DNA from: Herbidospora cretacea
GTDB lineage: Bacteria; Actinomycetota; Actinomycetes; Streptosporangiales; Streptosporangiaceae
Assembly: GCF_001570605.1 (NCBI RefSeq)
Contig: NZ_BBXG01000006.1
Span: 1-64,000, forward strand
Reading direction: 5' to 3'
DNA: 64,000 nt
The translations under genes and the position numbers were made by a program. Under the pieces are notes generated by a model, which did no database searches, had not been told where the DNA came from, and saw only the letters and a list, made by a program, of their open reading frames with translations. Shown in pieces: positions 40,699-57,119 of the stretch (its first letter is position 1; the number at the start of each line of letters is the position of its first letter).

Positions 40699-40722
40699 GT
40701 TAAACTAACAAGAAACTTTCTT
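40699..40722. promoter_or_regulatory. Tandem palindromes in the divergent importer/ROK promoter
   Basis: GTTAAACTAAC (40699-40709) is an inverted repeat of GTTA with a 3-base centre, and the touching AAGAAACTTTCTT (40710-40722) is a perfect palindrome apart from its centre. They lie in an unusually AT-rich block ending in a run of eight A. GAAACTTTC-type sites are known operators of sugar repressors in streptomycetes. They are likely binding sites for the adjacent ROK protein. Confidence 0.6.
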
Positions 40723-40768
40723 AAAAAAAACCCCGCGTTAGCGGATCGTGACGAGAAGGGAGGCAGCG

Positions 40769-41935
40769 GTGTCCCGACGTCCCGGCACGCCCCGGCTGCT
40801 CCGGCAGATCAACGACAGATCGGCCCTGGAGCTCCTTCTCCTGCAGGGCCCGCTCACCCGGGCTGAGCTGGGCGAACTCACCGGTCTGAGCAAGGTCACC
40901 AGCGGTCAGCTGCTGGCCCGGCTGGAGGACCGGGGCCTGGTCACCACGGCCGGCGAACGGGCCGGCGGGCGCGGCCCGAACGCCGCGCTCTACGCCGTCA
41001 ACCCCCGGTCGGCGTACGTCGCCGGCCTGGAGGTCTCGCCCGACAGCGTCACCGCCGGGGTCGCCGACATCACCGGCCGGCTGATCGCCGAGGTGACCGT
41101 CGACCCGTCCGAGGCGCGCGATCCGGTCAAGCTCGTCCACAACGCGCTCCTGCGCGCCTGCGAGAGCGCCGGCATCGGCCTCGACCAGCTCATGGGCCTG
41201 GTCATCGGGACGCGCGGCGTGGTCGACCCCCGCAGCGGGGACGTGCGCTACTCCTTCGACCTCCCGGCGTGGCACTTCGGCGTGCTGGCCGAGCTCCGGG
41301 CCGACCTGGGCCGGGCCGTGCGGATAGAGAACGACGTCAACCTCGCCGCCCTGGCCGAGCAGGCCCACGGAGCCGCGCGCGGGCTCGACGACTTCGTCAT
41401 CATGTGGGCCGGGATAGGGCAGGGCCTCGGCGTCATGCTCGGCGGCCGCCTCCACCGGGGCATCACCGGCGGCGCGGGCGAGATCGGCTGGCTTCCCGTG
41501 CCGGGGGAGCCGCTTCCCTCCGACGTACGCGATCCGCAGTCCGGCTCCTTCCAGCGCCTGGTCGGCGGCGACGCGGTCCACGGCATGGCGCTGGCCCACG
41601 GCGTGCACCCCCAGGAGGCGCCCGTGGCCGACCTGGTCGCCAGGGCCGTCGCCGAGGGGAACGGGCGCTTCCTCGACGAGCTCGCCGGGCGGCTGGCCGT
41701 CGGCGTCGCGGCCGTCGCCGTGGTGCTCGACCCCGGTCTCATCGTGCTGAGCGGCGACGTCGGGCGGGCCGGGGGGCCGGAGCTCGCCGCCCGGGTCGAG
41801 GACGAGGTGGCGCGGGTCTGCCCGAGCCGCCCCAGGGTCGCGGTGACCGAGGTCGCGGGGAACCCGGTGCTCCAGGGAGCCCTGGTGGCCGCCCTGGAGG
41901 AGGCGAGGGAACAGGTCTTCTCGGATACGGTCTGA
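40769..41935 (+). CDS. ROK-family transcriptional repressor (second copy)
   Basis: 388-residue paralogue of the ROK regulator at 34458. It has an N-terminal winged HTH (LTRAELGELTGLSKVTSGQLL) and a ROK fold with VVDPRSGDVRYSFDLP, RIENDVNLAALAEQAHGAA and the GGAGEIGWLPVPGEP loop; zinc-ligand cysteines are absent. GTG 40769 is chosen because AGAAGGGAGG precedes it closely; an in-frame GTG at 40748 lacks a ribosome site. It is divergent from the importer operon and most likely represses it. Followed after four bases by the dipeptidase gene. Confidence 0.88.
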   Translation: MSRRPGTPRLLRQINDRSALELLLLQGPLTRAELGELTGLSKVTSGQLLARLEDRGLVTTAGERAGGRGPNAALYAVNPRSAYVAGLEVSPDSVTAGVADITGRLIAEVTVDPSEARDPVKLVHNALLRACESAGIGLDQLMGLVIGTRGVVDPRSGDVRYSFDLPAWHFGVLAELRADLGRAVRIENDVNLAALAEQAHGAARGLDDFVIMWAGIGQGLGVMLGGRLHRGITGGAGEIGWLPVPGEPLPSDVRDPQSGSFQRLVGGDAVHGMALAHGVHPQEAPVADLVARAVAEGNGRFLDELAGRLAVGVAAVAVVLDPGLIVLSGDVGRAGGPELAARVEDEVARVCPSRPRVAVTEVAGNPVLQGALVAALEEAREQVFSDTV

Positions 41936-41939
41936 CATC

Positions 41940-42578
41940 ATGGGCGAAGTCATTCTGATCTCCGACCACCGGGTGACCTCCATCCCGGTGACCGATTGCC
42001 TGGAGCCGCTCGTCGATGTGCGGGCTTTCCTGCGCGTTGACGAACGGCTGGCCGACCCCGCCGGGGCCTTCGCCCATCTGCGGGCCGGGATGGCCGAACG
42101 GCTGCGGCGGGTGGTGCTGCCGCTCGGCGTCCACCTCCTGGTCGTCGAGGGCTACCGGCCGGTGTCGCTCCAGCGGAAGTGGTTCGAGGACTACCGCGAG
42201 ACGCTGCGGGCGACATTTCCGGAAATGTCGTCGGATGAGCTGCACGTGGCGGCGAGCCGGTTCGTCTCGCCGGTCGAAGTGGCCCCCCACACGGCCGGGG
42301 CCGCCGTCGACCTGACGCTGTGCGACGACGACGGCGTGGAACTCGACATGGGCACCGAGGTCAACGCGACCCCGGAACAGAGCGACGGGAACTGCTACAC
42401 CGCCTCCACCGGCATCTCGGCGGAGGCCACGCAGAACCGGAAGGTGCTGGTGACGGCGCTGGAGGGCGTCGGGCTGGTCAACTATCCGACGGAATGGTGG
42501 CACTGGTCCTACGGCGACCGTTACTGGGCCATGGCCCGGGGCCACGACTCGGCCGTCTACGGACCGGTCGAACTCTGA
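41940..42578 (+). CDS. VanX-like D-alanyl-D-alanine dipeptidase (peptidase M15D)
   Basis: 212-residue zinc dipeptidase. The expected elements are present: GYRPVSLQ with Arg73, zinc ligands His117 and Asp124 in PHTAGAAVDLTL, the base Glu185 and third ligand His188 in TEWWHWS. It hydrolyses D-Ala-D-Ala. No vanH or ligase gene is nearby, so recycling of D-Ala from peptidoglycan rather than glycopeptide resistance is the simpler role, in keeping with the N-acetylhexosaminidase locus. It begins four bases after the ROK gene, implying co-transcription. It has no signal peptide, so it acts in the cytoplasm. Confidence 0.88.
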   Translation: MGEVILISDHRVTSIPVTDCLEPLVDVRAFLRVDERLADPAGAFAHLRAGMAERLRRVVLPLGVHLLVVEGYRPVSLQRKWFEDYRETLRATFPEMSSDELHVAASRFVSPVEVAPHTAGAAVDLTLCDDDGVELDMGTEVNATPEQSDGNCYTASTGISAEATQNRKVLVTALEGVGLVNYPTEWWHWSYGDRYWAMARGHDSAVYGPVEL

Positions 42579-42623: not shown

Positions 42624-44459
42624 TCAGAGCGTTCTCGCTCTGGGGGATTCCCGCCGGCGGAGCGGTGCGCCCGGGGCGGTGGCGACGAGGTGGCCCGCGT
42701 GGGCGGTGAAGGTGGTGGTCCCCTCCGGCAGGTCGCCCGCCGGGTGCCACTCGCCGGTGGCGGCAGGGCGGCGGGTGACCAGGGTTCCGCTGCTGGTCAG
42801 GGCGTAGAGGCGGCCGTTCATGCCGCTCATGGCGACCGCGTCGCACTCCCCCCGGTCGAGCCACTCCTCGCCGGTGAAGGGCATCGCCCACAGGCGGCCC
42901 TCCGACGTCGCCGCCCAGAAGGTGCAGTCGGCGACGGCGAAGGCCACGGTGCCCGCCGGGCAGGTCGCCTCGTCGGTCCAGGGGGCCGGGATCTCGACGG
43001 CCGCCCTCGACCTCAGGATGCCGTCGGGGGTCACGCCGTACAGCAGGACGCCGCGGGTCCCGGCCGCCTCGCGCGGGGTGTCCAGGCACATCACGTCACC
43101 GGCCCAGCCGATGGGACGCCAGGGCAGGTTCTGGGCGCACAGTTCGCGGCTCATCAGGGCGCCGCCTGCGCTGACGCCGTAGAGGACGCGGGCGTCGGCG
43201 GCCAGGGCGCGGACGTCGGCCGGATCGCCGATCACGTCCCAGCCGTCGTACGGGGAGCTGAGGCGGGTCAGGACGTTGCGGGTGATCCGGTCGACCACCG
43301 GGTCGTGGAGGGTGTTGCCCCAGTTGACCGTCGCGGCGTTGAAGACGGTGCCCCGGCCCGAGGTGAAGACGCCCATGGTGGCCCAGCCGCCCTGGCCGCC
43401 CGATCGCCAGTGGCGCAGGTCGGCGGTGGCCAGGACGGTGAACGACGACGGGGTGCCGTCGCGTGAGGTCACCCTCGGGACGCCGCCCACCTCGACGAAC
43501 TCGGCCGCGTCGGTCTCGTAGCCGAGGGCGCCCTGGGCGAACTTGTCGCCCTCGGTCAGGCCGGTGCCCTCGAAGACCCAGTGGCCGGCGAAGCGGGTGA
43601 CGTACGACTCCTCGTTCATGAGGGGCATCGACGGGCCCCAGGTTCCCGCGCCCGCCCGGAAGCTGACGCCCGTCAGCGAGTTCTCGGGGCGGCCGACGCT
43701 CGACCACTCGGCGGTGACCAGCGCCGGGTCGTCGACGGGGTCGGTGAAGGGGTCGCGGTGGCAGACCAGGGTGCGGCCCTCCAGCCGCGCCTGCCACCAG
43801 GCGGTGTTCCCGGCGAAGATCGCCATGTTGCCGCCGCGCCGGACGAACTCCTCGCACGCGTCGCGCATCTCGCGGGTCCAGTATTCGTCGTGGCCGTTGA
43901 CGACCAGGAGCCGGTAGCCGTCGAGCAGCTCCCCGGACAGGTCGAGGCCGTCGCAGAAGTCGGCGTCGTAGCCCGCCGGGCGGAGCCAGCGCAGGAAGCC
44001 GTCCTCCCACCGCTCGGGCGAGGGGCCGCCGCCCGGACGGTCGAAAGTCACCTCGGTCGCGCGATCCGGGTCCTCGGTCCAGTAGAGGCCCTCGCCCGGG
44101 ACGCCCGCGCGGTTGTAGGCCTGCCAGGTCCCGAACGGGATGGAGACCAGGATGTCCTTCTTCGGCCCGGACGGGGTCACGACGAAGTAGACCTCGTCGT
44201 CGCCCGAGACGTTGGTGCCCGGCAGCTCACCGGTCGCCCGGGGCACCTCCGAGGCCGGGGCGTCGGTGAAGTGGGCGCGGTAGAGCGAGCTCGGCCAGTC
44301 GCCGGGGATGTCCAGGGTCCACCGGGGGCCGTGCGCGCGGGTGGTCAGCACGTGGGCGCCGGTGGTGGCGTCGTGGACGTGGACGCCGCTGTCGCCGCCC
44401 AGATGGAAGGTCAGCGGGCGGCCCTGGGGGCACGACGTCGCGGCGGCGTAGGCGATCAC
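42624..44459 (-). CDS. N,N-dimethylformamidase beta-subunit-like protein with C-terminal beta-propeller-like repeats
   Basis: 611-residue protein. Residues about 90-430 match the DMFase large-subunit-like fold (glutamine-amidotransferase-like core: GLYWTEDPDR, LVVNGHDEYWTREMRDACEEF, RRGGNMAIFAGNTAWWQ, WVFEGTGL). Residues about 445-600 contain four to five short repeats with spacing like tectonin or beta-propeller blades (VLYGVSAGGAL, VLLYGVTPDGIL, TFWAATSEGRLW, RLYALTSSGTLV). The GTG start at 44459 overlaps the condensation-protein stop (GTGA), so it belongs to the biosynthetic operon. A role as amide hydrolase or ligase-like tailoring enzyme, or as a binding protein, is inference. Confidence 0.7.
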   Translation of the reverse strand: MIAYAAATSCPQGRPLTFHLGGDSGVHVHDATTGAHVLTTRAHGPRWTLDIPGDWPSSLYRAHFTDAPASEVPRATGELPGTNVSGDDEVYFVVTPSGPKKDILVSIPFGTWQAYNRAGVPGEGLYWTEDPDRATEVTFDRPGGGPSPERWEDGFLRWLRPAGYDADFCDGLDLSGELLDGYRLLVVNGHDEYWTREMRDACEEFVRRGGNMAIFAGNTAWWQARLEGRTLVCHRDPFTDPVDDPALVTAEWSSVGRPENSLTGVSFRAGAGTWGPSMPLMNEESYVTRFAGHWVFEGTGLTEGDKFAQGALGYETDAAEFVEVGGVPRVTSRDGTPSSFTVLATADLRHWRSGGQGGWATMGVFTSGRGTVFNAATVNWGNTLHDPVVDRITRNVLTRLSSPYDGWDVIGDPADVRALAADARVLYGVSAGGALMSRELCAQNLPWRPIGWAGDVMCLDTPREAAGTRGVLLYGVTPDGILRSRAAVEIPAPWTDEATCPAGTVAFAVADCTFWAATSEGRLWAMPFTGEEWLDRGECDAVAMSGMNGRLYALTSSGTLVTRRPAATGEWHPAGDLPEGTTTFTAHAGHLVATAPGAPLRRRESPRARTL

Positions 44460-45724
44460 CGCAGGGCCGCCTCGACGAGCATCGTCTCCAGGCCGTGCAG
44501 GAAGCGCTCCATGTCGGCCCTGGACAGCCAGCGGGTGTCGGCGGTCACCGAGACGTCCATGGTGCCGCTCAGGTGGACGCAGAACCGGCAGTTGAGCTGG
44601 TCCTGCGACATCGGCCAGCTGAGCGCGCTCTCGCCGAGGGCCCGGCGGATCAGCGTCTCGTCGCGGTAGACGGGGTTGTCGGCGAAGCGCATGTCGTTGA
44701 AGCAGCACCACGGGTGGACGTCCGTCCCGCGCTCGGCCGCGACCCGCCGCAGGGCCGCCGACCGGTCGGCGGGGTCGTGGTAGGCGCTCCGGTAGGCCCG
44801 CAGCGCCGCCGCCCCGGCCAGACTCAGCAGCTCCTCGAACCGGACCTTCTCCACGTCGAGCACGAACAGCCCCTCCTGCGACATCGTGGTCACCGCGGTG
44901 CGGGTGTCGGCCCGGAACCGGTTGCCGACGATCGGCAGCATCGCCACGGTGTCGTGCCCGGTCATCTCCGAGACCAGCGCGGTCACCGCCGTCAGCAGGA
45001 CGGTCGAGGTGCTCGTGCCGTGGCGGACCGCGATCCGCTGCGCGGCCAGGTCGACGGCGGGGGACCGCAGCGACGCCCGCCAGATCGGCGGCGTCTCCCC
45101 AGCTCCGGACGGCACGTGGAACATGGTCGGCGGGATGCGCCGGTGGGCCTGCTCCCAGTAGGCCGCGGCCTCGGCGGCCACCCGGCGGCCCGCCTCCGAC
45201 CCCTGCCAGCGGGCGATGTCCATCGGCTGCGGCGGCCTGGCCGCGGGCGCGCCGCCGCGCAGCAGCAGCAGCCGCAGGTCGCGGATGGCCTGCTCGGCGC
45301 CCAGGCCGTCGGCCGCCAGGTGGCAGAACACCAGGACCAGATGGGTGACCTCACCGGCCTCCGACAGCACCAGCCCGGCGCGCAGCGGCCACTCGGTCTC
45401 GTAGTCGAACGGCTCGGCCGCCATCGCGGCCAGCAGCGTGTCGGGGTCGTCCCCGGTCCGGACGCTCAGCTCGCCGCCCGCCTTGAGCAACTGGCCCCCG
45501 TCGCGCACGAGCGTGCGCAGCGACTCGTGCCGTTCGGCCAGGCGGCCCAGCGCCCACAGGGCCGACGACACCGACGCCGGGCGCGCGCCCAGCGGCAGCA
45601 CCCGGCCGAAGTTGAAGTAGTGGTCGTCCGGCCGGGTCCGCTCGATCGCCTCCCAGATCGCGCGCTGGCCCCAGGTGAACGGAGCCGTTCCGGTGCGCCC
45701 GCCGGAGAAGACGGCCCGGGTCAT
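44456..45724 (-). CDS. Free-standing NRPS condensation-domain protein
   Basis: 422-residue stand-alone condensation domain. It starts like a C domain (FTWGQRAIWEAIERT). The active-site motif HHxxxDG appears as CHLAADG at 134-140: the first His is Cys134, but the catalytic second His135, Asp139 and Gly140 are kept, so activity is plausible. Later C-domain blocks (LPIVGNRFRADTRTAV, SQEGLFVLDVE) are present. It overlaps the carrier-protein gene by ATGA and probably uses that carrier as donor or acceptor. Confidence 0.85.
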   Translation of the reverse strand: MTRAVFSGGRTGTAPFTWGQRAIWEAIERTRPDDHYFNFGRVLPLGARPASVSSALWALGRLAERHESLRTLVRDGGQLLKAGGELSVRTGDDPDTLLAAMAAEPFDYETEWPLRAGLVLSEAGEVTHLVLVFCHLAADGLGAEQAIRDLRLLLLRGGAPAARPPQPMDIARWQGSEAGRRVAAEAAAYWEQAHRRIPPTMFHVPSGAGETPPIWRASLRSPAVDLAAQRIAVRHGTSTSTVLLTAVTALVSEMTGHDTVAMLPIVGNRFRADTRTAVTTMSQEGLFVLDVEKVRFEELLSLAGAAALRAYRSAYHDPADRSAALRRVAAERGTDVHPWCCFNDMRFADNPVYRDETLIRRALGESALSWPMSQDQLNCRFCVHLSGTMDVSVTADTRWLSRADMERFLHGLETMLVEAALR

Positions 45725-45922
45725 GCCGGTGACCGGGCGGCCTCGACCCAGGCGGCCAGCCCGTCGACGCTGTCGAGGAACGTGACGTCGCCGCTCAGGT
45801 CGACCTCGACGCCGTATTCGCGTTCGACGGCGTCGATGAGCCGCATCTGCGCCAGCGAGGTCACGCCGAGATAGGCCAGCGGCACGGTCGCCGCCAGCAC
45901 GTCGGCCGGGGTGAGCTCGCCG

Positions 45923-50959
<5,037 letters not shown>

Positions 50960-51020
50960 CTTCCCTCAAGAGATCGGACGACTGCAGCACAAAGAGGCCA
51001 AACGCCTCAGCCAGGGAAGC

Positions 51021-51184
51021 TAACTGGAAAGGTTCTTTGCAATTAGCGGACGGCGTCAGTCTGGCACGCCCCGTCTCCGCTCACAAGACCGAAACCGGCT
51101 TGGCCTATTGGTCTGGCAGAGCTGGGCACCCCTTGTGACGAGCATCGGGACCATGCCAGACTGGCCATGGGTCTAATTGGAAAG
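51021..51184. repeat. Direct repeats flanking the bidirectional cluster promoter
   Basis: TAACTGGAAAG (51021-51031) and TAATTGGAAAG (51174-51184) match in 10 of 11 positions, one near each side of the 282-base divergent region. They may bind a common regulator of the two arms of the cluster. Confidence 0.45.
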
Positions 51185-51217
51185 AATGTTTTCAGTAAAA
51201 CCGTGCTCGGGCAATAT
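51151..51217 (+). promoter_or_regulatory. Palindrome and candidate promoter of the AMP-ligase operon
   Basis: CCATGCCAG-A-CTGG(C)CATGG (51151-51170) is a near-perfect inverted repeat with one inserted C. Downstream, TTTTCA (51189-51194) and CAATAT (51212-51217) are separated by 17 bases and are weak but usable -35/-10 elements, followed by GAGGAAG ahead of the ATG at 51242. The rest of the 50960-51241 spacer shows no gene; no pathway-specific regulator is encoded in the cluster. Confidence 0.4.
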
Positions 51218-51241
51218 TCATCCGATCTTTGAGGAAGTCCT

Positions 51242-52618
51242 ATGACGCTCTCGGATCTGCTGGCGGCCCGCGCCGCCGCCGAACCTGACGGCGTCGCCAT
51301 GATCGTCCACGGGGTGGGGGAACTGACCTACTCCGGCTGGGACGCGCGCGCCGGCGCCATGGCGAACATCCTGATCAACGAAGGCGTCCGGCCGGGCGAG
51401 CCGGTGGGGCTGGTGTTCCCGCACGCCGCCTGGCTGGACTACGCGGTGGCGTTCATGGGCGTGCTCCGGGCGGGGGCCGTGGCCGTGCCGATGTCCGACC
51501 GGACGCCCGAGGGAGAGATCCGACTTCTGGCGGAACGTGCCGGAATTGCCCGGATTCTCCGGAACGTTCCCACGGGCCCCGCCGAACCCGCCGAACCCGT
51601 GAAAGTTTCATCCTCGGACCCCGCCCAGATTCTTTTCACCTCGGGGACCACGGGCGTCGCCAAGGGGGTCATGGCCACCCACGGCAACCTCGCCTTCGGG
51701 CTGCACCGCGACCCGCGCCGCAGGGCGTTCCGGCACTCCACCCACCTCGCGCACGCGTTCCCCATCGGGACCAACGCCGGTCAGATGATGCTGGTGAACG
51801 CGATCGCCGCCCACCCCACGGTGGTGACGACGCCCATGTTCACCACCGCCCGGTTCGCGAATCTTGTCGCGAAATATCAGGCCGGCACGGTATTCCTGGT
51901 GCCCGCCATGGCCATCGAACTTCTCTCGGCGGGGGTCGACCCGCTCGACAGCGTGCTGCTGCTGGGATCGGCCGCCGCGCCGCTGCCGGCCGCCGTGGCG
52001 GCGAAGCTCACCGAGCTGTTCCCGGCGGCGATGATCACGAACTACTACACCTCGACCGAGGCCGCTCCCGCTCAGACGATCATGGTGTTCGACCCCGAGC
52101 GCCCGGGATCGGTGGGCCGCGCGGCGGCCGGCGGGCAGGTCCGGGTCACCTCCGGCGACGGGACCCCGGCCGCCACCGGCGAGATCGGCGAGGTGTGGAT
52201 GCGCTCGTCCGCCGCGCCCCGCGCCTATCTCGGCGACCCCGACTCCGACACCTTCCGGAACGGGTGGGTGCGGATGGGGGACCTGGGCTACCTCGACGAC
52301 GACGGCTACCTGTTCCTGGTCGACCGGACCGGCGACGTCATCAAGTCCGGAGCCCACAAGGTCTCGACGCTGAAGATCGAGGAGGCGCTGCACGCGCATC
52401 CGCTGGTCAAGGAGGCCGCCGCCTACGGGGTGCCCCATCCGGTGCTCGGGAAGGCGGTGGCGGTGGCCCTGGTCGTCCAGGAGGAGATCCCGCTCCCCGA
52501 CCTCCGGTCTTTCCTGAGCGAGCGGCTGGCCCCGCACGAACTGCCCGCGAAGGTGACCACGATGGACGCGCTGCCGCGCAACCGGGGCGGCAAGGTCGAC
52601 AAGCGGGCCCTGTCATGA
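51242..52618 (+). CDS. AMP-forming acyl/aryl ligase (ANL superfamily)
   Basis: 458-residue stand-alone adenylating enzyme. The P-loop is FTSGTTGVAKG (132-142), the A5 region is NYYTSTEAAPAQ, the hinge region LVDRTGDVIKSGAHKVS and the catalytic lysine Lys451 in RGGKVDKRAL. It is shorter than most acyl-CoA ligases because the N-terminal part is compact. It should activate a carboxylic acid as the adenylate and load it on a carrier protein, either the free one (45721) or the PCP of the next gene, or on CoA. GAGGAAG is a good ribosome site. First gene of the rightward operon; ATGA overlap with the next. Confidence 0.88.
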   Translation: MTLSDLLAARAAAEPDGVAMIVHGVGELTYSGWDARAGAMANILINEGVRPGEPVGLVFPHAAWLDYAVAFMGVLRAGAVAVPMSDRTPEGEIRLLAERAGIARILRNVPTGPAEPAEPVKVSSSDPAQILFTSGTTGVAKGVMATHGNLAFGLHRDPRRRAFRHSTHLAHAFPIGTNAGQMMLVNAIAAHPTVVTTPMFTTARFANLVAKYQAGTVFLVPAMAIELLSAGVDPLDSVLLLGSAAAPLPAAVAAKLTELFPAAMITNYYTSTEAAPAQTIMVFDPERPGSVGRAAAGGQVRVTSGDGTPAATGEIGEVWMRSSAAPRAYLGDPDSDTFRNGWVRMGDLGYLDDDGYLFLVDRTGDVIKSGAHKVSTLKIEEALHAHPLVKEAAAYGVPHPVLGKAVAVALVVQEEIPLPDLRSFLSERLAPHELPAKVTTMDALPRNRGGKVDKRALS

Positions 52619-54039
52619 CCCCTGCCCCGACGGAGGCGTCGTTCGCGCAGACCGGGATGTGGATCACCGAGCGGATGGGACGGGCCCGCACGGCCTACCA
52701 CATGCCGCTGGTGATCCGTTTCGACGGGCCGCTGGACGTGTGCGCCCTGCACGCCGCGTGCGATGCGGTCGTCCGGCGGCACGCCGTGCTCTCCACGGCC
52801 GTCGCCGAGGACGACGGGCTGCCGGTGATGGTGCCGGGGATGCGGCCGGAGGTCCGGCTGACCACCGCCACCGACCTCGCCGCCATCGTCCGGGAGGAGA
52901 CCCTCGCGCCCTTCGACGTCGAGAAGGGGCCGCTCGCCCGGTTCGTCGTGGTCAAGCTCGACCCCGGGCGGCACGCCCTGGTGTTCGTCGCCCACCACCT
53001 GGTGTTCGACGGCGAGTCGAAGGACATCCTGGTCAGGGACCTGGCCGACTTCTACAACGGCGAGTCGCACCCCCGGCTGGGGATGTCCTACGCGAGCTTC
53101 GCCGAGGGGGAGCGGGAGCGCGTCAGGCGCGACCTCGCCGAGGCCAAGGCCTACTGGTCGTCACGGCCGGTGGGGGAGACGACGCTGCCCGGTCTCAAGG
53201 CGGCCGGTCTGGGCGCGGCCGAGGGCGCGGTGCGCACCTTCCCCGCCCGGATGCCCGAGGTGCCGGGCGTCTCCCGTTTCGAGCTGTTCCTGGCGTCGGT
53301 GCACACCCTGCTGCACCGCTACGGCAACCCCGATCCGACCGTCGCCGTCGACCTGTCCACCCGCGTCCCGGACGTCCGGGACAACATCGGCCTGTTCGTC
53401 AACGAACTCCCCGTCTCCGTCCGCGTCGAGGGCACCGTGGCCGACGTCGCCCGGACCCTGCACCGCGACCTGCGCGAGATGTACCGCTTCCGGCATGTCC
53501 CCTATGCCCGTGCGGTCCGGGGGGTGCGGCCGCGCACCGCGCTGGCGCAGGTCTCCGTCAGCTACCGCAAACGCCGCCCCGACCCCGTCTTCACCGGCGT
53601 CGAGGCCACCGTCGACTGGGCCGTCTTCAACCATTCCGTACGCAGCGTCCTGCACCTCCAGGCCGTCGACCACCCCGACGGCCTTTTCGTGATCATGCAA
53701 TACGGCGCCGGCTCCGGCACGGAGTCCGACGTCGCCCGGATAGCGGAGGACCTTCTCACCATCATGAACAACCCCGACATCCCTGTGGACGGCACCCCGC
53801 AGGCGGCCGGCCTGGACGACGCCATCCGCGAGATCTGGCAGGAAGTCCTGGGCATCGACGAGATCGGCGACGACGAGGACCTGTTCGACCTCGGCGGGCA
53901 CTCGCTGACCATCACCCAGATCATCGCCCGCATGCGCAAGCGCCTCGGCGTCGAGGTCCCCCTCGACGTCTTCTTCGACACCCCGACGATCGCGGGCGTC
54001 GTCCAGGCGATCCGCGAGGCGGAACCGGCCGTCAGGTGA
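52615..54039 (+). CDS. Condensation-PCP didomain NRPS protein
   Basis: 474-residue protein. Residues 1 to about 385 form a condensation domain with a full HHLVFDG motif (127-133) and NELPVSVRVE. Residues 395-474 form a carrier domain with DLGGHSLTI, phosphopantetheine Ser430. No adenylation domain is attached, so its carrier must be loaded by a separate enzyme, most simply the AMP ligase encoded just upstream. ATG 52615 overlaps that gene's stop (ATGA), and its own stop overlaps the E1-alpha start (GTGA). Confidence 0.9.
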   Translation: MTPAPTEASFAQTGMWITERMGRARTAYHMPLVIRFDGPLDVCALHAACDAVVRRHAVLSTAVAEDDGLPVMVPGMRPEVRLTTATDLAAIVREETLAPFDVEKGPLARFVVVKLDPGRHALVFVAHHLVFDGESKDILVRDLADFYNGESHPRLGMSYASFAEGERERVRRDLAEAKAYWSSRPVGETTLPGLKAAGLGAAEGAVRTFPARMPEVPGVSRFELFLASVHTLLHRYGNPDPTVAVDLSTRVPDVRDNIGLFVNELPVSVRVEGTVADVARTLHRDLREMYRFRHVPYARAVRGVRPRTALAQVSVSYRKRRPDPVFTGVEATVDWAVFNHSVRSVLHLQAVDHPDGLFVIMQYGAGSGTESDVARIAEDLLTIMNNPDIPVDGTPQAAGLDDAIREIWQEVLGIDEIGDDEDLFDLGGHSLTITQIIARMRKRLGVEVPLDVFFDTPTIAGVVQAIREAEPAVR

Positions 54040-54890
54040 CCACCACCGACCTCGACCGGTTACTGCTCATCCGCCACTTCGAACGCGCCCTGCTCGACCT
54101 GTTCGCGAAGGGCGAGCTCAACGGCACGACCCACACGTGCCTGGGCCAGGAGATCGTGCCCGTGGCGGTGTCGGGCCTGCTCGGCCCGGACGACCGCGTC
54201 TTCAGCAACCACCGGGGTCACGGCCACTACCTGGCCCGGTTCGACGACCCCGCCGGCCTGCTGGCGGAGATCATGGGCCGCGAGGGGGCGGTCTGCGGCG
54301 GGGTCGGCGGCAGCCAGCACATCCTGCGGGACGGGTACGTGTCGACCGGCGTCCAGGGCGAGAGCCTGCCCGTGGCCGCCGGCGCGGCCCTGCACCTTCG
54401 CGGTTCGGGGGCGCTGGCCTGCGCCTACATCGGCGACGGGACCTGGGGGGAGGGCGCGGTCTACGAGTCGCTGAACCTGGCGGCGCTGTGGGGGCTGCCG
54501 CTGCTGGTCGTGGTGGAGCACAACGGCATCGCGCAGACGACGCCGACCGAGCTCGCCATGTCCGGAGACATCGCGGCACGGTGCGCGGCCTTCGGGGTCC
54601 GGCACGTCGCCCTGCCCGCCGACGACGTCGGAGCGGTCCGGGCCGTCCTGGAACCGCTGGTCTCTTCGGTACGCACCGGCTCGCCCCTCGTGGTGGAGTT
54701 CGCGGTCAACCGGCTGGGGCCGCACAGCAAGGGTGACGACACGCGGTCAGGCGTCGACGAGCTCCGCGACTGGTATCGCGACATGTCGGGCGACACGGGC
54801 TTCGCGGAGGCCGACGCCCGCGCCCACGACCTGGTCGACTCGGTGGTACGCGAGGTGAAGGCCCGCCCTGCCTCCCGGTGGGACCGATGA
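54036..54890 (+). CDS. TPP-dependent 2-oxo-acid dehydrogenase E1 alpha subunit (cluster-specific)
   Basis: 284-residue E1-alpha of the pyruvate/acetoin dehydrogenase type. The thiamine diphosphate motif is GDGTWGEG (133-140) through Asn163 in VEHNG; FSNHRGHGHYLA and GGSQHI are also typical. It is shorter than usual E1-alpha chains (about 320-400). With E1-beta it would decarboxylate a 2-oxo acid, or accept a ketol unit, and pass the acyl group to lipoyl-E2. GTG 54036 overlaps the PCP-protein stop, placing it firmly in the NRPS operon. Codon 9 is TTA (54060-54062), a rare codon that suggests bldA-dependent translation. Confidence 0.9.
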   Translation: MTTTDLDRLLLIRHFERALLDLFAKGELNGTTHTCLGQEIVPVAVSGLLGPDDRVFSNHRGHGHYLARFDDPAGLLAEIMGREGAVCGGVGGSQHILRDGYVSTGVQGESLPVAAGAALHLRGSGALACAYIGDGTWGEGAVYESLNLAALWGLPLLVVVEHNGIAQTTPTELAMSGDIAARCAAFGVRHVALPADDVGAVRAVLEPLVSSVRTGSPLVVEFAVNRLGPHSKGDDTRSGVDELRDWYRDMSGDTGFAEADARAHDLVDSVVREVKARPASRWDR

Positions 54891-54925
54891 ACCGCCGGCT
54901 TTCGTCGCCCTGGTGGCAGGGTGTG

Positions 54926-54954
54926 CGGAGCCGTACCGAAAAAGGGCTTTTCCG
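54926..54954. repeat. Dispersed 26-29 base repeat, copy 2
   Basis: GCGGAGCCGTACCGAAAAAG and the following GGCTTTTCC match the segment at 24626-24654 in 22 of the first 26 positions. This copy fills the middle of the 94-base gap between E1-alpha and E1-beta, the only non-overlapping junction in the rightward operon. Confidence 0.4.
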
Positions 54955-54984
54955 CTCTGACCCGCACCTGACGAGGCGGCCCGC

Positions 54985-55962
54985 ATGCGCGTAGTAGAGA
55001 ACCTCAACCGGGCCCTCCACGAGGTGCTCGCCGCCGACCCGAAGGCCCGCCTTCTCGGCGAGGACCTGCTCGATCCCTACGGCGGCGCGTTCAAGGCCAC
55101 CCGAGGCCTGTCGACCGCGTTCCCCGGGCAGGTCCTCACCACACCCATCAGCGAGAACGCCATCACCGGCGTCGGCGCGGGCCTGGCGCTGTGCGGCGAG
55201 ACAGCGATCGTCGAGATCATGTTCAGCGACTTCGTCACGCTGGCGTTCGACCAGATCGTCAACTTCGCCGCCAAGTCCGTCTCCATGTACGGCACCCGCG
55301 TCCCGATGCGCCTCATCGTCCGCCTGCCCACCGGCGGCGGCCGGGGCTACGGCCCCACCCACAGCCAGAGCCTGCAGAAACACTTCATCGGCGTGCCCGG
55401 CCTCGACGTCTACGAGATGTCGCCCCTGCACGACAACCGCGCCGTCCTCGCCGCCATGATCGCCTCGCAGCGGCCCTGCGTCTTCTTCGAGGACAAGGTC
55501 CTCTACACCAAGCGCATGCACCAGGTGGACGACCCCTTCACCTGGGACCTCACCGACGGCCTGGCCCGCGTCCACGTCGACGCGCCCCCCGACTGCGTGA
55601 TCATCGCCCCCGGCGGGGTCACCCACCGGGCCGTCGCCGCGATGCGCCGCCTCCTGATCGAGCAGGAGATCATCTGCACCCTGCTCGTCCCCTCCCGCCT
55701 CCACCCCCTCGACGTGACCTCCCTCGTCGCCGCCGCCCGCGGCGCGAAGTCGGTCGTCGTCGCCGAGGAGAGCACCGCCGGCGGCACCTGGGGCGCCGAG
55801 GTGGCCCACCGGCTCCACCAGGAGCTGTGGGGCGTCCTGCGCAACCCGGTCGCGCTGGCCCATTCGGCCGACAGCGTCATCCCCACGGCCTCCCACCTCG
55901 AACGTGCCGTGCTGCTGACCGAGACCACCATCCACGACACGGTCCTGGAGTCCCTCAAGTGA
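54985..55962 (+). CDS. TPP-dependent 2-oxo-acid dehydrogenase E1 beta subunit (cluster-specific)
   Basis: 325-residue transketolase-fold E1-beta of normal length. Family marks are the N-terminal RVVENLNRALHEVL, LTTPISENAITGVGAGLA with the glutamate that activates TPP, GYGPTHSQSLQKHF lining the lipoyl channel, and FEDKVLY. It forms the E1 heterotetramer with the chain encoded at 54036. GAGG precedes the ATG. Its stop overlaps the E2 start (GTGA). Confidence 0.92.
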   Translation: MRVVENLNRALHEVLAADPKARLLGEDLLDPYGGAFKATRGLSTAFPGQVLTTPISENAITGVGAGLALCGETAIVEIMFSDFVTLAFDQIVNFAAKSVSMYGTRVPMRLIVRLPTGGGRGYGPTHSQSLQKHFIGVPGLDVYEMSPLHDNRAVLAAMIASQRPCVFFEDKVLYTKRMHQVDDPFTWDLTDGLARVHVDAPPDCVIIAPGGVTHRAVAAMRRLLIEQEIICTLLVPSRLHPLDVTSLVAAARGAKSVVVAEESTAGGTWGAEVAHRLHQELWGVLRNPVALAHSADSVIPTASHLERAVLLTETTIHDTVLESLK

Positions 55963-57119
55963 AGGTCCCCAAGCTCAACAACAACGACGACAGCTATGTC
56001 CTGGTGGAATGGCTGGTCGCCACCGGGACCGAGGTCAAGGAGGGCGACCCGATCGCCGTCCTGGAGACCTCGAAGTCGGCCGAGGAGGTGACCGCCGACG
56101 CGTCCGGAGTCCTGCTCCAGGAGGTCGCCCTGATGGCCGACTGCGCCCCCGGGGACCTGCTGGCCACCATCGGCTCCGTGGTCGAGGTCCCCCCGGCGGA
56201 CGACCGGACCTACTCCGAGACCCTGGCCTCCGCGCTGGCCCACTCGCCGGAAACGGGCGCCTTCGCCACCGGAGCCCTCTCGGCCGCCGGAGTGACCCCC
56301 GCCAAACGCCCCGGCCCCGTGATCACCGCTCCCGCCCGCGCCGCCATGGACGAACTCGGCGTGACCGAGGACCAGGTCGCCGCCCTGGGCATCCCCGTGA
56401 TCCGCCGGACCGACGTGGCCCAGCTCGCCGCCGCCAACGCCGCCCCCACCGAGCCGCTGTCCAAGGTCCAGCAGGCCGTCGGCCGCGCCGTCGCGCTCTC
56501 CCACTCCACGATCCCCGCCGCGTACGCCGTCCTCGACATGCCCCTGGACGAGGAACTCGCCGCCACCCGCCGCCTGACGAAGCAGGTCCGCCGCCCGGTC
56601 GGCCTGCCCGAACTCTTCGTCATGGCCGTCGCGAGACTCCACGCGGAGTTCCCGCTGTTCTTCGCCACCCTCAGCGACGACCGGACCAAGGCCGTCCTCT
56701 CCGACCGCCCCAACGTCGGCGTGACCTTCGACACCGGCGACGGCCTGTACGTCCCGGTCGTCCACGACGCCGCCGCGAAGTCGCTCCAGGAGGTGGCGAC
56801 GAAACTGATGGAATACCGCGTGGCCGCGATGAAGGGCGACTTCAAGGCGACCGACCTGGCCGACGCGAACATCGCCGTCACCCTCCACCACGACGGCGGC
56901 ATCAGCCTGGCGATCCCCTTCATCTTCCCCGGCACCGCCTGCGCCCTCGCCGTCACCGCCCCCCAGGAGACCCTCTACCTGGACGGCACCGAGGTGAAGG
57001 CCCGGCAGGTCTCCCACATAGGCCTCGCCTACGACCACCGCCTCATCAACGGCCGCGACGCGGCCCGCTTCCTCGCCGCCCTCCAACGGGAGACCAGAGC
57101 CCTGGCGACCACGGACTGA
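55959..57119 (+). CDS. Lipoyl-dependent E2 acyltransferase (cluster-specific)
   Basis: 386-residue E2. Residues 1-75 are one lipoyl domain with attachment Lys39 in LETSKSAEE; about 113-150 a peripheral-subunit-binding domain; about 160-386 the CAT-like catalytic domain. The active-site motif usually DHRxxDG reads DHRLING (His360 kept, Asp replaced by Asn). E2 normally passes the lipoyl-bound acyl group to CoA; here the phosphopantetheine of a carrier protein is an attractive alternative acceptor. No E3 gene follows, so lipoyl reoxidation needs the housekeeping E3, or none if no net oxidation occurs. Last gene of the operon. Confidence 0.9.
   Translation: MKVPKLNNNDDSYVLVEWLVATGTEVKEGDPIAVLETSKSAEEVTADASGVLLQEVALMADCAPGDLLATIGSVVEVPPADDRTYSETLASALAHSPETGAFATGALSAAGVTPAKRPGPVITAPARAAMDELGVTEDQVAALGIPVIRRTDVAQLAAANAAPTEPLSKVQQAVGRAVALSHSTIPAAYAVLDMPLDEELAATRRLTKQVRRPVGLPELFVMAVARLHAEFPLFFATLSDDRTKAVLSDRPNVGVTFDTGDGLYVPVVHDAAAKSLQEVATKLMEYRVAAMKGDFKATDLADANIAVTLHHDGGISLAIPFIFPGTACALAVTAPQETLYLDGTEVKARQVSHIGLAYDHRLINGRDAARFLAALQRETRALATTD

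What the first reader, a model, noticed from the sequence alone, without database searches (positions are those of the whole stretch)
42624..57119. Compact divergent NRPS cluster wired to its own 2-oxo-acid dehydrogenase E1/E2
Nine genes in two coupled arms combine free C, free carrier, C-PCP, AMP ligase and a one-module NRPS with E1-alpha, E1-beta and lipoyl-E2. GTGA overlaps physically couple E1-alpha to the C-PCP gene. Known precedents (NapB/NapD in naphthyridinomycin, related quinocarcin genes) move a C2 unit from a ketose through TPP and lipoyl chemistry onto a carrier protein. Here the E1 subunits are separate and of dehydrogenase type, with a full E2 and two free-standing condensation proteins. 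I recognise no described cluster with this gene set.
Basis: partly seen in the sequence, partly recalled or inferred. Interest (0 to 1): 0.88.

Follow-up and report, generated by a model that had tools for sequence, protein, structure and literature searches.

The report
Carbon-unit loader in orphan peptide cluster
A soil actinomycete carries a small peptide-making gene cluster with its own enzyme trio, related to enzymes of the dnacin and naphthyridinomycin antibiotics, that probably takes a two-carbon piece from a sugar and hands it to the peptide assembly line.

Summary
Nine genes at 42624-57119 form two divergent arms: NRPS-MFS, PCP, free C and an amidohydrolase-like protein (minus); AMP ligase, C-PCP, E1-alpha, E1-beta, lipoyl-E2 (plus). 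GTGA overlaps join C-PCP to E1-alpha and E1-beta to E2. Of 58 free-C relatives (52% identity or more), 56 lie within 12.1 kb of an E1-alpha. NRPS and C-PCP match 'nrps-6' of Herbidospora cretacea (Komaki 2015, predicted '?-Asn'). The stated contrast with NapB/NapD is largely wrong: E1-alpha is 62% identical to the protein taken as DinU (dnacin NapB homologue), E1-beta 56% and E2 34% to the halves of DinS (NapD homologue); two housekeeping sets of the same genome reach 25-35%. E2 shares DHRxxNG with the NapD type. Best reading: an unfused sister of NapB/NapD that loads a C2 hydroxyacyl (glycolyl) unit onto C-PCP, which could be the '?' of '?-Asn'. Donor, product and function are untested. 345 related stretches exist in the species-level genome collection, in varied clusters. 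New variant of a known kind.

The parts
45923..50959 (-). NRPS, 1678 aa: C-A-PCP-TE fused to a C-terminal MFS exporter; A code DFTKIGHVG(K), Asp/Asn-like
   Evidence: Pfam; code (positions and meaning recalled from GrsA-type codes); Komaki 2015 lists C/Aasn/T-TE, 1678 aa
45721..45963 (-). free-standing carrier protein (PCP), 80 aa, serine motif LGVTSL
44456..45724 (-). free-standing condensation protein, 422 aa, motif CHLAADG (second His kept)
42624..44459 (-). DMFA2_C-like protein, 611 aa: distant relative of N-acetyl-(R)-beta-phenylalanine acylase and dimethylformamidase, C-terminal beta-propeller; probable N-acyl amidohydrolase
51242..52618 (+). AMP-forming acyl ligase, 458 aa
52615..54039 (+). 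C-PCP didomain, 474 aa, motifs HHLVFDG and LGGHS; presumed acceptor of the E2 acyl unit
   Evidence: Komaki 2015 lists C/T, 474 aa
54036..54890 (+). E1-alpha, 284 aa, NapB/DinU type (HRGHGH)
54985..55962 (+). E1-beta, 325 aa, like the N-terminal half of DinS (NapD homologue)
55959..57119 (+). lipoyl-E2, 386 aa: lipoyl Lys in ETSKS, catalytic DHRLING (Asp to Asn), like the C-terminal half of DinS
50960..51241 (.). divergent intergenic (presumed promoter) region between the two arms
40769..41935 (+). ROK-family regulator, conserved beside the cluster in some genera (flank)
41940..42578 (+). M15 peptidase (VanX/VanY-like), conserved beside the cluster in some genera (flank)

Best explanation
The E1-alpha/E1-beta/E2 trio is an unfused sister of the NapB/NapD system. 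Shown: homology, gene coupling, conserved catalytic and lipoyl residues, linkage to carriers and C proteins. Inferred: TPP-bound E1 takes a two-carbon hydroxyethyl unit from a ketose phosphate (xylulose-5-P or fructose-6-P), acylates the lipoyl arm of E2, and E2 passes the glycolyl group to the phosphopantetheine of the C-PCP protein instead of CoA; a housekeeping E3 reoxidises the lipoyl. Inferred further: the AMP ligase, free PCP and free C supply another acyl group (perhaps a cryptic leader), the NRPS adds Asp or Asn, TE releases, the fused MFS exports, and the amidohydrolase-like protein trims an N-acyl group. The glycolyl unit would be the '?' of the published '?-Asn' prediction for nrps-6.
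For: E1-alpha 62% identical to DinU, E1-beta 56% and E2 34% to the two halves of DinS, against 35 and 29, 32 and 30, 28 and 25% to the own C6 and C24 housekeeping proteins. L168 is taken as the dnacin cluster because eight gene sizes (223, 280, 336, 754, 76, 306, 486, 613 aa) equal the published table. E1-alpha tree: the NapB-type row L121 lies inside the 83-row set with the window, support 99/98, branch 6.5 from housekeeping. E1-beta tree: 39 split rows form one branch (100/100) beside seven NapD-type rows, all 46 apart from two housekeeping rows (100/99). E2 DHRxxNG in 76 of 77 split and 7 of 7 NapD-type rows; DHRxxDG in the 3 own housekeeping E2s looked at, of 4 other than the two trio E2s. 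E1-alpha, E1-beta and E2 adjacent in 76 of 80 named loci. A PCP gene in 72 of 80 loci, none among 39 genes around two own housekeeping E1/E2 loci (the PCP profile was built from these clusters). Free C within 12.1 kb of an E1-alpha in 56 of 58.
Against: No substrate has been tested; homology to a pair reported to use a ketose does not fix the donor. In the E1-beta tree the split type lies outside the NapD-type rows, and the place of L121 in the E1-alpha tree is weak (86/61) with long housekeeping branches. No KASIII (NapE type) partner was found. PDB sequence matches favour PDH E1 over split transketolase (9e-39 v 8e-8), though this would probably hold for NapB too. 8 of 80 loci show the trio with no carrier found (L086, L102 and L104 are short contig-end loci). 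DHRxxNG fails in L097, and in L049 (DHRTVTG, not in the 77). HRxHGH in the 80 loci is partly built in, since a scan pattern contained it. NapB and NapD themselves were not compared, only the proteins taken as DinU and DinS.
Confidence: 0.6

Rival explanations
1. The trio is an alpha-keto acid dehydrogenase (pyruvate, 2-oxobutyrate or branched chain) that primes the C-PCP carrier with acetyl, propionyl or isobutyryl, as proposed for pepteridine.
For: E1-alpha and E1-beta match PDH-type families in Pfam, NCBIfam (below the curated cut-offs) and PDB. Pepteridine uses PDH-like E1 and an E2 fused to T-C, with alpha-ketobutyrate and pyruvate.
Against: The trio groups with NapB/NapD-type proteins and not with the own housekeeping E1s; E2 carries DHRxxNG like the NapD type; the added histidines of HRxHGH in E1-alpha and QKHF in E1-beta are shared with the NapB/NapD type and lacking in the two own housekeeping E1 sets.
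Confidence: 0.25
2. The trio only makes an acyl-CoA or free acid that the AMP ligase or primary metabolism uses; it is coupled by gene order but not by carrier transfer.
For: Eight loci show the trio without a carrier gene nearby (L086, L097, L098, L102, L104, L114, L126, L129).
Against: Overlap of C-PCP and E1-alpha; a carrier gene directly upstream of E1-alpha in many unlike clusters; the E2 motif differs from the own housekeeping E2s.
Confidence: 0.1
3. The trio makes a C2 unit for carbon-carbon bond formation or transfer to an acceptor other than a carrier (as in two-carbon branched sugars or rifamycin L, both recalled), the lipoyl domain being vestigial.
For: Sugar genes (GH1, aldose epimerase, kinase; in L056 also a glycosyltransferase) flank the related trios in L052, L055 and the own paralogue L056.
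Against: The lipoyl Lys motif is in 74 of 77 E2 rows and the catalytic His is kept; no sugar-modifying gene is among the nine; the sugar genes may be plain synteny.
Confidence: 0.05

Closest known systems
NapB/NapC/NapD (naphthyridinomycin) and DinU/DinT/DinS (dnacin B1)
   Same: E1-alpha, adjacent carrier, E1-beta plus lipoyl-E2; 62/56/34% identity to DinU and the two DinS halves; DHRxxNG; set in an NRPS cluster with an acyl ligase
   Different: E1-beta and E2 are separate genes here; the carrier is a C-PCP didomain, not a free ACP; no KASIII found; free C, PCP and amidohydrolase-like gene present; product unknown
Pepteridine cluster plu2792-plu2799 (Photorhabdus luminescens)
   Same: PDH-like E1/E2 supplies an acyl group to a carrier for a condensation domain
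   Different: there E2 is fused to T and C, keto acids are used and the acceptor is a tetrahydropterin; no pteridine genes among the nine here
nrps-6 of Herbidospora type strains (Komaki et al. 2015)
   Same: the same cluster: 474-aa C/T and 1678-aa C/A/T-TE on scaffold 06 of H. cretacea, listed for all five type strains
   Different: the paper lists only multidomain genes and predicts '?-Asn'; E1/E2 and the MFS part are not named in its main text
N-acetyl-(R)-beta-phenylalanine acylase / N,N-dimethylformamidase large subunit
   Same: similarity over the DMFA2_C domain, with the HxEY motif shared with the acylase
   Different: shorter, with a C-terminal beta-propeller; only distant similarity (3e-9 and 6e-7)

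Membership tests
NapB/NapD two-component C2-loading system | E1-alpha of the NapB/DinU branch | tested here: met
   62% to the protein taken as DinU; tree
NapB/NapD two-component C2-loading system | E1-beta and lipoyl-E2 of the NapD/DinS type, with DHRxxNG | tested here: met
   56% and 34% to the DinS halves, motif shared; a branch beside the NapD-type rows
NapB/NapD two-component C2-loading system | E1-beta and lipoyl-E2 fused in one chain | tested here: not met
   separate GTGA-overlapping genes; therefore filed as a sister variant, not as a NapB/NapD member
NapB/NapD two-component C2-loading system | carrier protein encoded next to the E1-alpha gene | tested here: met
   C-PCP overlaps E1-alpha
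NapB/NapD two-component C2-loading system | KASIII-like partner (NapE/DinQ) | tested here: not met
   no KASIII among the window genes scanned with Pfam
NapB/NapD two-component C2-loading system | ketose phosphate as donor, glycolyl on the carrier | not testable with these tools
   needs an enzyme assay
Housekeeping PDH/BCKDH complex | groups with primary-metabolism E1/E2 proteins | tested here: not met
   25-35% to the own C6 and C24 sets; trees 63, 95
Housekeeping PDH/BCKDH complex | DHRxxDG in E2 | tested here: not met
   DHRLING; own E2s DHRVIDG, DHRLVDG, DHRIIDG
Pepteridine-type E2-NRPS | T-C fused to E2, and pteridine genes | tested here: not met
Komaki 2015 nrps-6 | 474-aa C/T and 1678-aa C/A/T-TE on scaffold 06 of an 8.28-Mb, 36-scaffold genome | tested here: met
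   window C-PCP 474 aa, NRPS 1678 aa; contig C6 of 36, 8280334 bases

The most novel reading that the evidence does not exclude
A widespread, split-gene branch of NapB/NapD-like enzymes feeds sugar-derived hydroxyacyl units directly from lipoyl-E2 to NRPS carriers in many unrelated actinobacterial clusters, the DHRxxNG change marking a switch of acceptor from CoA to carrier protein; the window cluster makes an exported, deacylated glycolyl-Asp/Asn-type small peptide of a new class.
Probability: 0.3. Interest if true: 0.72.

Novelty: new variant of a known kind. Interest (0 to 1): 0.5.

Why it matters
Direct channelling of a central-metabolism C2 unit onto an NRPS carrier has, to my knowledge, been described in few clusters. 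If the split branch works alike, the E1-alpha/E1-beta/E2 trio becomes a simple genome-mining handle for hundreds of orphan clusters and fills the unknown position in the published nrps-6 prediction. It also gives a testable hypothesis on how an E2 acyltransferase changes its acceptor from CoA to a carrier protein.

Tried and rejected
Rejected: ORF 40721-41983 on the minus strand as a tenth cluster gene; codon statistics put the real gene on the plus strand (ROK regulator). Rejected: the trio as the organism's only such complex; other E1/E2 genes exist. Rejected: the NRPS as an invariable part; it is missing from the syntenic cluster in G220, G022 and G104, where the best relatives elsewhere reach 53% or less. 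Weak: the AlphaFold model of the DMFA-like protein (mean pLDDT 69.6) supports the beta-propeller and an acylase match of low TM-score (0.33), not an active site. The E2 model (mean pLDDT 83.2) was not searched further. Literature searches (all ten allowed). Searches returned nothing; of the papers listed by the others I read parts of five (PMC5384830, PMC7570522, PMC9268379, PMC8648761, PMC4599437) and only listings of the rest. Peng et al. 2012, the primary NapB/NapD paper, is not held, so NapB/NapD biochemistry is cited through PMC7570522 (passages and section 7) and PMC5384830 (abstract, sections 6 and 10); PMC9268379 and PMC8648761 were seen as passages only.
Full report
What is there. The reported nine genes are real. 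Minus arm: NRPS (45923-50959), PCP (45721-45963), free C (44456-45724), DMFA2_C-like protein (42624-44459). Plus arm: AMP ligase (51242-52618), C-PCP (52615-54039), E1-alpha (54036-54890), E1-beta (54985-55962), lipoyl-E2 (55959-57119). Overlaps of the form ATGA or GTGA join ligase/C-PCP, C-PCP/E1-alpha, E1-beta/E2, PCP/C and C/DMFA. The NRPS is C-A-PCP-TE with an MFS exporter fused at its C-terminus. Downstream lies an Lhr-type helicase gene, not part of the cluster.

Identity of the genome and earlier description. The window lies on contig C6 of an 8,280,334-base genome in 36 contigs; its nearest named relatives are Herbidospora. Komaki et al. 2015 (PMC4599437; abstract, parts 1 and 2 of 5 of the text, section 11 and term passages seen) sequenced H. 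cretacea NBRC 15474T, 36 scaffolds, 8,282,092 bp. Its nrps-6 is a 474-aa C/T protein and a 1678-aa C/Aasn/T-TE protein on scaffold 06, predicted product '?-Asn', listed for all five type strains. These sizes equal the window C-PCP and NRPS. Single-domain genes were excluded there, and 'dehydrogenase', 'transketolase', 'lipo' and 'MFS' do not occur in the main text. My A-domain code DFTKIGHVG reads Asp-like from memory; the paper's antiSMASH reading is Asn; I leave it as Asp/Asn.

Conservation. From the list I took 122 places with E1-alpha relatives of 56% identity or more, in 91 of 297 family genomes; three partial matches were left out. Twenty 20-kb loci were fetched. Fifteen (L037-L048, L050, L051, L054) show the window's arrangement as far as they reach; five (L049, L052, L053, L055, L056) are rearranged or different. 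L046-L048 (G220, G022, G104) lack the NRPS gene but keep the other eight. Of 58 free-C matches at 52% identity or more, 56 lie within 12.1 kb of an E1-alpha; the exceptions are G144, where C and E1-alpha sit near ends of two contigs, and G129. A scan of a collection of 84,980 species found 345 relatives among 356 pattern matches; the best 80 were kept. In these, E1-alpha, E1-beta and E2 are neighbours in 76 of 80: two misses are contig ends (L093, L136), one has a small called gene in between (L087), one is the fused L121. At 40% identity or more to a window gene, 52 of 80 also have ligase and C-PCP, 36 of 80 also PCP and C, and 22 of 80 the DMFA-like gene (loci cut by contig ends counted as misses). 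A carrier gene was found in 72 of 80 loci and in none of 39 genes around two own housekeeping E1/E2 loci (the carrier profile was built from the clusters themselves).

Relation to NapB/NapD. L121 (Actinocrispum wychmicini) carries E1-alpha, a 76-aa carrier, a 645-aa E1-beta/lipoyl/E2 fusion and a KASIII, beside ADC-synthase and HpaB genes: the order of DinU, DinT, DinS, DinQ, DinV, DinW in the dnacin table of PMC7570522 (section 7), where DinU and DinS are given as 68% and 59% identical to NapB and NapD. L168, from an unnamed 8,131,572-bp genome, matches eight published dnacin gene sizes exactly (223, 280, 336, 754, 76, 306, 486, 613 aa); two called genes differ (894 against 909 aa, 341 against 706 aa, where my caller took a shorter stretch), and genes at the locus ends are cut. 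I treat it as the dnacin cluster. Against its proteins the window scores 62% (E1-alpha/DinU), 56% (E1-beta/DinS) and 34% (E2/DinS); against the own C6 and C24 housekeeping sets 35 and 29, 32 and 30, 28 and 25%. In the E1-alpha tree of 86 rows L121 lies within the window's 83-row set (99/98); its exact place is weak (86/61), and the housekeeping rows are on very long branches. In the E1-beta tree of 48 rows the 39 split rows form one branch (100/100) beside the seven NapD-type rows, which fall in two groups of two and five. So the window trio is best called a sister branch.

Motifs. E2 has DHRxxNG in 76 of 77 split rows (L097 differs) and 7 of 7 NapD-type rows; L049, not among the 77, has DHRTVTG. 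Loci with an E2 called shorter than 250 aa or missing (L066, L087, L093, L136) were left out. The three own housekeeping E2s looked at, of four besides the two trio E2s, have DHRxxDG. The lipoyl motif is in 74 of 77; in the three misses (L063-L065) the N-terminal stretch lies outside the ORF as my script called it. HRxHGH in E1-alpha is in 82 of 82 split rows, partly built in by the scan pattern, and in 6 of 6 NapB-type rows that came through the NapD search (7 of 7 with L121). GPHSKGDDT is in 68 of 82 and THSxxxQKHF in 72 of 79 split rows, and in 7 of 7 each of the NapB/NapD type. The free C has CHxxxDG in 24 of 24 rows counted, the C-PCP HHxxFDG in 42 of 42.

Mechanism. By homology the trio loads a C2 hydroxyacyl unit on the overlapping C-PCP. 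The dnacin paper gives the donor for the DinS/DinU pair as D-xylulose-5-phosphate by analogy to NapB/NapD. The pepteridine paper supports the alternative, keto acids onto a carrier through E1/E2, and notes that E3 would come from the host. Which donor is used here is not decided; I put 0.6 on the NapB/NapD-type reading and 0.25 on keto acids. The DMFA-like protein resembles N-acetyl-(R)-beta-phenylalanine acylase (3.4e-9) and dimethylformamidase (6.2e-7), keeps HxEY in 12 of 12 aligned rows and adds a beta-propeller. With the acyl ligase this suggests that a cryptic N-acyl group is added and later removed, as leader removal is proposed for dnacin. This is inference.

Breadth. The trio recurs in quite different clusters: with a carrier, an NAD_binding_4 reductase and an M28 peptidase (L049), with an NRPS-MFS, carrier and glycosyltransferase (L056, own paralogue; 1709 aa on C5, as Komaki nrps-7 on scaffold 05), with an AAT-family protein (L079) and beside several NRPS-like genes (L073, L115, L127).

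Verdict. Observation confirmed; interpretation partly supported. The NRPS genes were known as an orphan cluster; I did not find the E1/E2 link or the NapB/NapD kinship of this cluster in the ten literature searches, most listed papers being seen only as listings. New variant of a known kind, interest 0.5.

Noticed in passing
window 45923-50959; own genome C1, C8, C5, C3: An NRPS module plus TE is fused to an MFS exporter. The own genome has four further relatives at 44-52% identity, on the scaffolds of Komaki nrps-3, -4, -5 and -7; the MFS part is shown by Pfam for C6 and C5 and covered by the match on C1, but the matches on C8 and C3 stop before it and were not tested.
   Followed up: partly
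L086, L098, L102, L104, L114, L126: A closely related trio in Lentzea, Saccharopolyspora, Nocardia and Streptomyces with no carrier gene found nearby (some loci are short) and a 362-aa gene in the neighbourhood; in L126 that gene is a GRAS-domain (PF03514) protein.
   Followed up: partly
window 44456-45724 and relatives: The free condensation protein has CHxxxDG in place of HHxxxDG in 24 of 24 rows counted.
   Followed up: partly
L070, L071, L074, L083, L089, L091, L110: Clusters that keep the DMFA-like gene, C, PCP, ligase, C-PCP and trio but show no NRPS gene in the fetched locus.
   Followed up: partly
L092, L107, L117, L130 (and L077, L080 in part): Related Streptosporangium clusters add NRPS modules with codes that read Gly-like (DILQLGVxW) and basic-residue-like (DTEDIGTII), then an Asp-like TE-MFS module; in Planomonospora L077 and L080 only the Gly-like one lies in the locus (readings recalled).
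   Followed up: no
window 40769-42578: ROK regulator and M15 (VanX/VanY-like) peptidase pair conserved next to the cluster in several genera.
   Followed up: partly
L056 (own genome C5), L052, L055: Related trios flanked by GH1 and aldose-epimerase genes, with an APH/fructosamine-kinase-like gene in L056 and L052 (not scanned in L055); in L056 a glycosyltransferase sits between the carrier and E1-alpha.
   Followed up: partly
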